Positions 40,986-43,214 of a stretch of DNA of 64,000 nt are shown here, in pieces. Origin of the DNA: Aphelocoma coerulescens (taxonomy: Eukaryota; Chordata; Aves; Passeriformes; Corvidae); contig NC_091019.1 in the NCBI RefSeq assembly GCF_041296385.1, positions 8,827,264 through 8,891,263 of the forward strand. The letters are read 5' to 3'. A model generated the notes under the pieces. That model saw only the letters and a list, made by a program, of their open reading frames with translations. It searched no databases and was not told where the DNA came from. How positions within the stretch are numbered: position 1 is the first letter of the stretch; each line of letters starts with the position of its first letter. Made by a program: the position numbers and the translations under genes.

Positions 40986-41265
40986 TGTTGCAGTGGGGAT
41001 ACTGTAACATGCATATCAAACAAGGAGTCCCGTGGAAAAGAAATATATATGGACAGATTCTTGGTAGATATTTTCAGAGATGTTTATTTCTCCAGCCGCA
41101 TGGCCGGGGCTCTGCTGAGGAACTGTTACAATCCCGGGACTGAGGGTCCTTGCCCTCAAAACAACCAATGAGGAACGAGGCTGACCAGGGGCCCGGGAAA
41201 CCGCGTCTCTGTCCCCTCAGGGCCCCTCTCCCAGGGCTACATGGCGGGGGGAAAGGACTCCGACA
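40986..41265 (-). repeat. 3' LTR of the Y-box-carrying provirus, 280 bp
   Basis: Starts TGTTGCAGTGGGGATACTG and ends GGACTCCGACA (plus strand). It shares ATCAAACAAGGAG and ACAATCCCGGGA with the LTR at 42977 but not with the solo copies at 20055 and 34645, supporting a common origin of the pair. A 15-bp segment present at 42977 is missing here. Confidence 0.9.
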
Positions 41266-41497
41266 TTTCACCCATTTATTTTTAACAAAAAGAGATTTAA
41301 AACTTAACATTGAAAACAACTGGATAAACATAACAAGAGCAGTTTCAAAACAATACAAGCCACACTCCTGAGTCTTTAAATGTCCAAACAGATTCTCTGG
41401 AACATCTTAAGGCTGACAGAAAGGAGACAGGACTCTCTGGGCATGCTTTGTGGGGAAACTGAGGCAGGAGAGGGTTTAATTCCTTCCTTCTCCCTTT

Positions 41498-42115
41498 TCA
41501 TCCCCCCCTCAGCATCAGAGAGGAGTTGTAGGGAAATGGAATTGTATAGGGAAGCCATGGGGTGAAAAATGGATTAGGAATAAACTGGGGATGGGGTAAA
41601 CTTAGCAAGGGGCTCATATTGGTTATAGGGTAAAAGGGGAAAGTAGGCTGTGGGTAAGGAAGTTGCTGGGATGAATATTGTTTATAATTTTGTGCATAAC
41701 GGCTGCCTTTTACTGGAATACCTCCAGGCCCAGTAACATTCGCTGCTTGTAAACCCTTCTTTCCTTGCACTATATCAAACTGTACAACTTCCCTATCTCC
41801 TACACTTTGCAGGTAATTTTTACAGTTATTCCTTTTAATGGCAGTTCTATGGATGAATAAATCTTCCCCTGTATCATCTCGTGTTATAAATCCATAGTTG
41901 TTTTTTACATTGTACCATTTCACAGTTCCTGTGATTTTCGTTGCTATAACTTCTCCAATCACGTGCTTGCATGTTTGTTGTGGCTGCTGGTCCCGTGTGG
42001 CCGCCGCCTTGCTGACTCTGACGTCTCGGCCAGGCCCCCACGCTGCAGCTGCTCTGTGCCCTGAGAGCGGCGCTGCTCCAGCGCGTCTGGGCTCTGCGCG
42101 GCCCCGCATTGCCAT
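41498..42115 (-). CDS. Y-box / cold-shock-domain protein captured by a provirus
   Basis: 205 residues from ATG at 42115, which has a strong context (G at -3, G at +4); the frame can be read a further 13 codons upstream but without another ATG. Residues 56-132 form a complete vertebrate Y-box cold-shock domain: GTVKWYNVKNNYGFI contains the RNP1 motif and DLFIH the RNP2 motif. The residues known to contact nucleic acid in this family (Trp67, Phe76, Phe87, His89) are present. The family-typical NVTGPGG..VKGSRYA follows. An Ala/Arg-rich N-terminus precedes the domain. The usual basic/acidic repeats of the C-terminal half are replaced by a Pro/Tyr/Phe-rich tail (142-205). There are no introns, so capture from a spliced mRNA is likely. 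Y-box proteins bind and package mRNA; a role in packaging the element's RNA is my inference. Whether the parent was YBX1, YBX2 or YBX3 I cannot tell. Confidence 0.88.
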   Translation of the reverse strand: MAMRGRAEPRRAGAAPLSGHRAAAAWGPGRDVRVSKAAATRDQQPQQTCKHVIGEVIATKITGTVKWYNVKNNYGFITRDDTGEDLFIHRTAIKRNNCKNYLQSVGDREVVQFDIVQGKKGLQAANVTGPGGIPVKGSRYAQNYKQYSSQQLPYPQPTFPFYPITNMSPLLSLPHPQFIPNPFFTPWLPYTIPFPYNSSLMLRGG

Positions 42116-42344
42116 CACCGCCAGCCCCGCGTCCTCCGAGTGGTTCTGCTTCACGAACTACACACTGCTTTGAGTGCAGCCTTGTTTTGGCTTGGTGCTG
42201 CCCTGTGCAGCTTCTTGTGTCGCTATGGAAACTGCCGCTTCTTGCTCTACGGGGCTCTCCAAGCCGTGTGCTCAGAGCGGGCTTCCACTCTGAACCCCAG
42301 TTCCTGGCTGCTCATGGCCCACGGCACCTGCGGCACCTGCGGTG

Positions 42345-42863
42345 TCACTCCCTCATTTGCGGTTGAGTGGCTGGGGACCCCGAGACAGGGATGGGGTTTG
42401 CGATAAGGCACGTGCTCCCGAGGGGGCCGGGCACATCCAGCGGAGGCACCTCCGCCAGCATGGCTGCAGTCATGCGCTCCTGGGATGGCTGCCGCGCGGT
42501 CTCGGCCATGGGATTACAGTCATCCTCTGCTTTAGGGGTAATGGGACCATATAAATGCTCCTGAAGAGCTTCAGTGATTACAAGGCATCCACAGAGGGGT
42601 TCAATCACTAATGCATGTTTTGTTTGATCCCCCATCTCACAGAAGATCTCGTACCAAAAACACTCGAGACGAGTTCCAGAAGGATTAATATCAAAAAGTA
42701 AGTCTCGAGAAATATAGAAGAAATTTTTGAAAAGCCAGTTAAAAAAATGTTCTAGATCTCTCGGAACAAATACTTTCTTGTTTTGCTGTTCCAGGATTCC
42801 TTTAACTTCTAGATACATTTCTTTCTCTGGCTCAGAGAGCCACATTTCCCATGATTCTTCCAT
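42345..42863 (-). CDS. Gag matrix-like protein of the Y-box-carrying provirus
   Basis: 172 codons from an ATG about 115 nt downstream of the 5' LTR, the position of gag. The first 110 residues have a matrix-like helical pattern (FFNWLFKNFFYISRD, then WYEIFCEMGDQTKHAL) comparable in layout to the betaretrovirus-like matrix remnant at 5573-5806. The rest is Pro/Ala/Glu-rich without zinc knuckles. The initiator is MEES, so there is no myristoylation signal. It ends in a stop 230 nt before the cold-shock ORF, which is in a different frame, so the two are probably separate proteins. The assignment is by position and weak resemblance. An alternative is a host-derived leader sequence. Confidence 0.6.
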   Translation of the reverse strand: MEESWEMWLSEPEKEMYLEVKGILEQQNKKVFVPRDLEHFFNWLFKNFFYISRDLLFDINPSGTRLECFWYEIFCEMGDQTKHALVIEPLCGCLVITEALQEHLYGPITPKAEDDCNPMAETARQPSQERMTAAMLAEVPPLDVPGPLGSTCLIANPIPVSGSPATQPQMRE

Positions 42864-42976
42864 AGTCCAGAGAGAATATCCAAACCAAGGTGAGAAGAGA
42901 GAGATCTAGAGTGGCTTTTTACTCACGAATTTTCTGTCCTTAGGGGTCAGTATCTTGCCTGCATTCTCTACCATTA

Positions 42977-43214
42977 TGTTGCAGTGGGGATTACTGTAAC
43001 ACTCATATCAAACAAGGAGTCCCGTGGAAAAGAAATATATATGGACGGATTCTTGGTAGATGTTTCAGAGATGTTTATTTCTCCAGCCGCATGGCCGGGG
43101 CTCTGCCGAGGAACTGTTACAATCCCGGGACCGAGGGTCCTTGCCTGTGCAGGGAAACACAAAACAACCAATGGGGAACGAGGCTGACCAGGGGCCCGGG
43201 AAACGACCCTGACA
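42977..43214 (-). repeat. 5' LTR of the Y-box-carrying provirus, 238 bp
   Basis: Same family as 40986-41265 but lacks about 45 bp next to its CCCTGACA end. Followed on the outside by the target-site copy TTAAAT. Confidence 0.9.

What the first reader, a model, noticed from the sequence alone, without database searches (positions are those of the whole stretch)
40986..43214. A provirus that captured a Y-box (cold-shock) gene
A 2.2-kb element with two related LTRs and a perfect outer duplication TTAAAT contains a matrix-like ORF and an intronless Y-box protein with intact RNP1 and RNP2 motifs. Host gene capture is well known for acute transforming retroviruses but seldom seen as an endogenous family. 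Y-box proteins coat mRNA, and here the protein takes the place of capsid and nucleocapsid, suggesting it may help package or stabilise the element's RNA.
Basis: partly seen in the sequence, partly recalled or inferred. Interest (0 to 1): 0.93.

Follow-up and report, generated by a model that had tools for sequence, protein, structure and literature searches.

The report
Crow retroelement carrying captured Y-box gene
This is a short retrovirus-like element in a crow-like genome that carries a copied host RNA-binding (Y-box) gene behind a viral matrix-like segment, and related proteins from New Caledonian crow indicate that it belongs to a multi-copy family.

Summary
On the minus strand, 40986-43214 is a 2,229-bp LTR element: LTRs of 238 and 280 bp (10 substitutions in 225 aligned sites), a perfect 6-bp duplication TTAAAT, a matrix-like first ORF, and an intronless Y-box ORF (Pfam CSD 1.8e-21; solved Y-box proteins 2e-39) with its RNP residues intact. 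It is not a lone pseudogene: six distinct Corvus moneduloides proteins share the domain, five of them a proline/aromatic tail absent from the four cellular Y-box proteins aligned. P0001 has a matrix-like N-terminus, P0006 begins in the last part of that segment, and P0003 ends in sequence related to this LTR. Nine family rows form one clade (96/97). The matrix claim is moderately supported: the best PDB fold match is Rous sarcoma virus matrix, but E=2.3. In this copy stops and a frame change separate the matrix and Y-box frames. Best reading: a non-autonomous ERV family whose Gag-like product joined matrix to a captured YBX1-type domain, moved by another virus's enzymes. A role in RNA packaging is inference. 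No earlier report appeared in the listings seen.

The parts
40980..40985 (.). Target-site duplication TTAAAT, left copy
40986..41265 (-). 3' LTR, 280 bp, starts TG and ends CA on the sense strand; AATAAA at 41088-41083 (by eye)
41266..41497 (-). Region between the Y-box stop and the 3' LTR; purine-rich run just after the stop codon, only a weak purine run next to the LTR (by eye)
41498..42154 (-). Y-box ORF, 218 aa from GTG (first ATG 42115, 205 aa)
41690..41953 (-). Cold-shock domain, residues 68-155; RNP1 41885-41902, RNP2 41849-41860
   Evidence: coordinates worked out by hand
41501..41689 (-). Proline/aromatic tail, residues 156-218, shared by 7 of the 8 family hits read and absent from the four cellular YBX1/YBX2 proteins aligned
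   Evidence: tail-only search (2 hits)
42155..42344 (-). Linker between the ORFs; in the matrix frame it resembles the N-terminus of P0003, with stops and a frame change before the Y-box frame in this copy
42345..42863 (-). Matrix-like ORF, 172 aa; residues 1-112 predicted as a five-helix domain
42864..42976 (-). Leader; splice-donor-like GTGAGT at 42926-42921 (by eye)
42977..43214 (-). 5' LTR, 238 bp, deletion near its start (U3) not seen in the three other LTR copies
43215..43220 (.). Target-site duplication TTAAAT, right copy
20055..20341 (-). Solo LTR of the same LTR family, duplication TAAAAT
34645..34931 (-). Solo LTR of the same LTR family, duplication GCCTGG

Best explanation
A non-autonomous class-II-like (ERVK-type) endogenous retroelement of corvids that captured the spliced mRNA of a YBX1-type gene. 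Shown: LTRs, target duplication, a first ORF in the matrix position, an intronless Y-box with intact nucleic-acid-binding residues, a multi-copy protein family with shared tail and linker, and matrix-type plus Y-box sequence in one database protein in two relatives (one with only the last part of the matrix segment). Inferred: the ancestral product was one Gag-like protein, matrix - linker - cold-shock domain - proline/aromatic tail, in which the host RNA-binding domain stands where capsid and nucleocapsid would be; the RNA was reverse-transcribed and integrated by enzymes of an autonomous ERV; the Y-box part bound the element's own RNA and helped it be stored or packaged. This copy is decayed: matrix and Y-box frames are disconnected.
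For: LTR/duplication anatomy. Domain identity. Of 236 hits, the best 120 are listed; six are distinct Corvus moneduloides proteins at 43-84% identity, and two unnamed ones (P0002, P0012) also carry family features (sequences; other unnamed hits were mostly not read). P0001's first 95 residues against the window matrix ORF: 0 of 1000 shuffles as good; against the gag N-terminus of another ERV in the window (5576-5956): 0 of 1000; P0006's start against P0001 60-140: 56 of 73 identical. P0003's end matches the LTR, 21 of 35 residues, 0 of 200 shuffles. Family clade 96/97. Domain less diverged than linker plus tail in 11 of 11 pairs tested (not independent, and not every possible pair), Fisher p<0.05 in 9. 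In simulation an ORF of this length stays free of stops in 0.35% of 4000 neutral runs at 0.3 substitutions per site. [quoted passage not shown]).
Against: No expression, RNA-binding or packaging data. Direct comparisons of the neighbouring gag N-terminus with the window matrix ORF (903 of 1000 shuffles as good) and with P0121 (464 of 1000) fail; a three-row profile of the family finds it only at E=0.32. Pfam sees no matrix domain and the PDB fold match has E=2.3; the model's alignment included that gag piece, so it is not a wholly separate test. P0001/P0003/P0006 are database gene models that could be artificially spliced. The domain-versus-rest contrast comes largely from the linker, whose alignment is unreliable: against the tail alone, window versus P0001 is 9/88 versus 9/63, and in 3 of the 5 pairs tested within the P0003-P0006 group the tail differs less than the domain. 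No tRNA primer site was identified. The window copy has two otherwise conserved domain residues changed.
Confidence: 0.45

Rival explanations
1. Captured passenger: the Y-box gene is inside the element, but spread depends only on LTRs and packaging signals used in trans; the protein has no role in the element's cycle, or only had one at the start.
For: The window copy has disconnected frames and two changed conserved residues. Many non-autonomous LTR elements need no protein of their own (general knowledge).
Against: Several diverged copies keep an open cold-shock domain with W80, F89, F100 and H102 invariant; neutral survival of such an ORF is unlikely, though database proteins are picked for being open.
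Confidence: 0.3
2. LTR transactivator: the captured Y-box protein acts on the inverted CCAAT (Y-box) element of its own LTR and raises transcription.
For: ATTGG is present at the same place in 3 of 4 LTR copies in the window (read); a paper on YBX1 and HTLV-1 transcription exists (PMC10487795, search listing only).
Against: CCAAT boxes are common and mostly bound by other factors (general knowledge); the matrix-type sequence ahead of the Y-box in P0001 and P0006 points to assembly, not transcription.
Confidence: 0.12
3. Domesticated host gene family: some copies are expressed crow genes with a host role, and the LTR element is only their vehicle.
For: Six distinct Corvus moneduloides entries are predicted as proteins in UniRef.
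Against: All six are named 'Uncharacterized protein'; they may be automatic predictions. Orthology of single loci between species was not tested.
Confidence: 0.08
4. Processed pseudogene that happened to land in an LTR element.
For: Intronless; Y-box processed copies are common (general knowledge).
Against: Same tail and linker in several copies, matrix-type or LTR-related sequence attached in three relatives.
Confidence: 0.03

Closest known systems
Crocodilian CrocERV29 (KIT-ligand) and CrocERV31 (nectin3) gene-capture families (PMC4299795; passages)
   Same: Host mRNA captured by an endogenous retrovirus lineage and present in several copies; KIT-ligand ORFs reported under purifying selection.
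   Different: KIT-ligand sits between pol and env with no ERV domain lost; nectin3 replaces env. Here an intracellular RNA-binding domain stands in the Gag position and no pol was found.
Acute avian gag-onc viruses (proteins named erbB, gag-crk and Fps among the fold matches)
   Same: Matrix N-terminus followed by a captured host coding sequence in a replication-defective element (recalled; one search does not show which part of each target matched).
   Different: Those are exogenous oncogene carriers; this is a germline family with a non-oncogene RNA-binding domain.
MMTV Gag - cellular YB-1 interaction (PMC4486188; passages)
   Same: Retroviral assembly linked with a Y-box protein and viral RNA.
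   Different: MMTV recruits the host protein; here the gene is inside the element.
Crow corCorLTRK1b 2.25-kb ERVK insertion near NDP (PMC7341801; passages and one section)
   Same: Crow genome, ERVK class, almost the same length.
   Different: LTR 296 bp; the two primers that by their names lie in its LTRs have no match in the window at up to 3 mismatches. Identity otherwise untested.
Cellular YBX1/YBX2
   Same: Cold-shock domain; roughly 60-70% identity over the matched part.
   Different: Charged C-terminal domain missing; proline/aromatic tail instead. Family residues KWY and GFIT in 9 of 9 family rows, G[KR][KR]GxQA in 8 of 8 rows that reach it, in none of the 18 other rows (read).

Membership tests
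LTR retroelement / ERV | Two LTRs with TG...CA ends | tested here: met
LTR retroelement / ERV | Target-site duplication | tested here: met
   6 bp TTAAAT; two solo LTRs with 6 bp each
LTR retroelement / ERV | tRNA primer-binding site after the 5' LTR | not tested
   No bird tRNA set at hand; none recognised by eye
Autonomous ERV | pol (reverse transcriptase, integrase) | tested here: not met
   No pol domain by Pfam in the two main ORFs or eight short ones; the element has no other ORF of 150 aa or more
Class II / ERVK-like | 6-bp target duplication | tested here: met
   assignment of 6 bp to this class is general knowledge and not unique to it
Class II / ERVK-like | Phylogeny of pol | not testable with these tools
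   no pol found in the element
Retroviral matrix protein | Sequence match to a matrix family model | tested here: not met
Retroviral matrix protein | Matrix fold | tested here: inconclusive
   Five helices, pLDDT 74.6; rank 1 of 10 PDB matches is RSV matrix, prob 0.69, target TM 0.67, but E=2.3
Y-box protein family | Cold-shock domain with RNP1/RNP2 | tested here: met
Y-box protein family | Basic/acidic C-terminal domain | tested here: not met
   Proline/aromatic tail instead
Crow corCorLTRK1b | LTR sequence | tested here: inconclusive
   LTR primers not found; consensus not available

The most novel reading that the evidence does not exclude
A retroelement lineage replaced capsid-nucleocapsid with a host mRNA-coating domain, giving a minimal Gag (matrix - Y-box - sticky tail) that forms RNPs with its own RNA and was kept by selection while the family multiplied in crows; Y-box modules were swapped between matrix backbones (P0001 and P0006 share the end of a matrix/linker type but carry Y-boxes of different clades).
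Probability: 0.3. Interest if true: 0.92.

Novelty: new variant of a known kind. Interest (0 to 1): 0.78.

Why it matters
Host gene capture by retroviruses is best known for growth and surface genes. A germline family that took up an RNA-coating host protein into the Gag position would be a natural test of which Gag functions can be replaced by a cellular RNA-binding domain, and of how retroviruses use YB-1. It also gives crow biologists a gene content for short LTR elements of the size class that affects plumage in crows, if that element proves related.

Tried and rejected
Tested whether the window is the crow NDP locus: four of the six published primers, no match at up to 3 mismatches. Viral contig collection: no hit with the Y-box protein. 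Region search with the tail alone: 2 hits, P0001 and P0002, of 4 candidates. First matrix fold on all 172 residues was poor (pLDDT 46.5) and was not used; a 112-residue version with a different alignment was. PDB sequence search with the matrix ORF and with the neighbouring gag N-terminus: no retroviral match. Late-domain-type motifs: none in the window tail; loose matches in P0001 and P0002 among family rows. Rfam at gathering threshold: none. Literature: ten searches, of which five joined Y-box, YBX1 or cold-shock terms with retroelement terms; no title or abstract start listed reports a Y-box or cold-shock gene captured by an ERV. Lists were capped (15 of 23, 12 of 85, 12 of 264, 10 of 29), and the library lacks most subscription papers. 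Three papers were searched for Y-box terms (none) and one for capture terms (none). Processed pseudogene landing in the element: rejected because of the family. dN/dS: not possible, no DNA of other Y-box-bearing copies.

Full report
What is there. The element lies on the minus strand at 40986-43214. It has a 5' LTR (43214-42977, 238 bp) and a 3' LTR (41265-40986, 280 bp), both TG...CA, flanked by a perfect TTAAAT duplication. The LTRs differ at 10 of 225 aligned sites (Kimura distance 0.046), and each has a deletion not seen in the other three copies. With the rate used for the crow NDP insertion (0.0158 per site per million years, PMC7341801) this would be about 1.4 million years (my arithmetic); slower rates give older ages, so it is only indicative. 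Two further LTRs of the family, at 20055-20341 and 34645-34931, are solo LTRs with their own 6-bp duplications.

The Y-box ORF. It spans 41498-42154 (218 aa from a GTG; first ATG at 42115). Residues 69-156 match a solved Y-box protein (E=2e-39) and residues 75-142 Pfam CSD (1.8e-21). W80, F89, F100 and H102 are invariant in 13 of 13 aligned proteins. The charged C-terminal domain of YBX1/YBX2 is missing; a proline/aromatic tail takes its place.

It is a family. The homolog search gave 236 hits, of which the best 120 are listed. Six listed hits are distinct Corvus moneduloides proteins (P0001, P0003-P0006, P0106), with 9 member sequences in all; P0002 and P0012 are unnamed. Sequences were fetched for these eight, for the three matrix hits and for one other, P0019. 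Seven of the eight carry the tail or a relative of it; P0106 does not. P0001 starts with matrix-like sequence and P0006 starts in the last part of the same segment (56 of 73 residues shared); P0003's end matches the last part of this LTR (21 of 35 residues, 0 of 200 shuffles). In a tree of 27 rows the nine family rows form one clade (96/97), P0012 branching first; the program warned of long branches meeting, so this is supportive, not final. P0012 keeps a stretch after the domain that resembles YBX1 more than YBX2 (by eye), so a single capture of a YBX1-type mRNA is likely; no protein named YBX3 was in the set.

The matrix-like ORF. Three hits of 31 candidates: two unnamed and one from Corvus hawaiiensis. 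Pfam and PDB sequence searches find nothing retroviral. The window ORF matches the P0001 N-terminus (26 of 80 residues, 0 of 1000 shuffles), and the P0001 N-terminus matches the gag-position ORF of another ERV in the window (14 of 34, 0 of 1000); direct comparison with that ORF fails for the window ORF (903 of 1000) and for P0121 (464 of 1000), and a three-row profile reaches it only at E=0.32. The 112-residue model has five helices (pLDDT 74.6); its alignment of four rows included the neighbouring gag piece. Its best PDB match is Rous sarcoma virus matrix (prob 0.69, E=2.3; 0 of 10 matches have E of 0.001 or less). Three of the 50 viral rows shown (52 found, 0 with E of 0.001 or less) are avian retroviral transforming proteins, ranks 1, 6 and 31; that their matched part is Gag matrix is inferred. 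I take it as a matrix domain by position, chain of homology and fold rank together.

State of this copy. The linker in the matrix frame resembles P0003's N-terminus, which runs on into its Y-box; here that frame has stops and does not continue into the Y-box frame. Two domain residues, C111 and R121, are unique to this copy. The family structure was therefore probably one protein, and this copy is decayed.

Selection. In 11 of 11 pairs tested (not independent, and not every possible pair of the nine rows) the domain differs less than linker plus tail, with p<0.05 in 9; P0004-P0005 and P0004-P0006 are not significant. Most of the contrast comes from the linker, which aligns poorly; in 3 of 5 pairs tested within the P0003-P0006 group the tail differs less than the domain. 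In 4000 neutral runs per setting, the ORF stayed free of stops in 56% at 0.023 substitutions per site, 10% at 0.1 and 0.35% at 0.3. So this copy's open frame since insertion says little, but survival of open frames over the family's history suggests selection. Database proteins are picked for being open, which weakens this.

Function. [quoted passage not shown] YB-1 depletion lowers HIV virion production through viral RNA metabolism (PMC6040738, abstract). A retroelement that carries its own Y-box domain in the Gag position could use it for its RNA. This is inference.

What is known. Gene capture by ERV families is documented in crocodilians (PMC4299795, passages). No report of a captured Y-box gene appeared in the listings of ten searches of the open library, some of them capped. 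The bird W chromosome is a refuge for full-length ERVs (PMC8310711, passages); this ERV-rich window may be from there, but that was not tested. The species is inferred from the named close hits being Corvus.

Noticed in passing
46099-55482 (+): Very recent gamma-like provirus: 555-bp LTRs differ at one site; its env-like ORF (52035-54869) has immunoglobulin domains (Ig_3 4.5e-13) ahead of a weak GP41 match (below Pfam's cut-off), another possible host-domain capture.
   Followed up: partly
1049-6681 (-): ERV with 553-bp LTR-like repeats at 98.7% identity, an integrase ORF (rve 1.4e-19) and an env ORF with a TLV_coat match and an Avian_gp85 match just below its cut-off.
   Followed up: partly
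57688-61389 (-): Repeat pair (335 bp, 97.6%) around an ORF with a Gag_p24 match.
   Followed up: no
10451-11035 and 38224-38790: Large inverted duplication, 85-98% complementary in four blocks.
   Followed up: no
P0001 and P0006 (protein hits): They share a matrix-end/linker type (56 of 73 residues) but carry Y-boxes from different clades, suggesting module exchange, unless gene models are at fault.
   Followed up: partly
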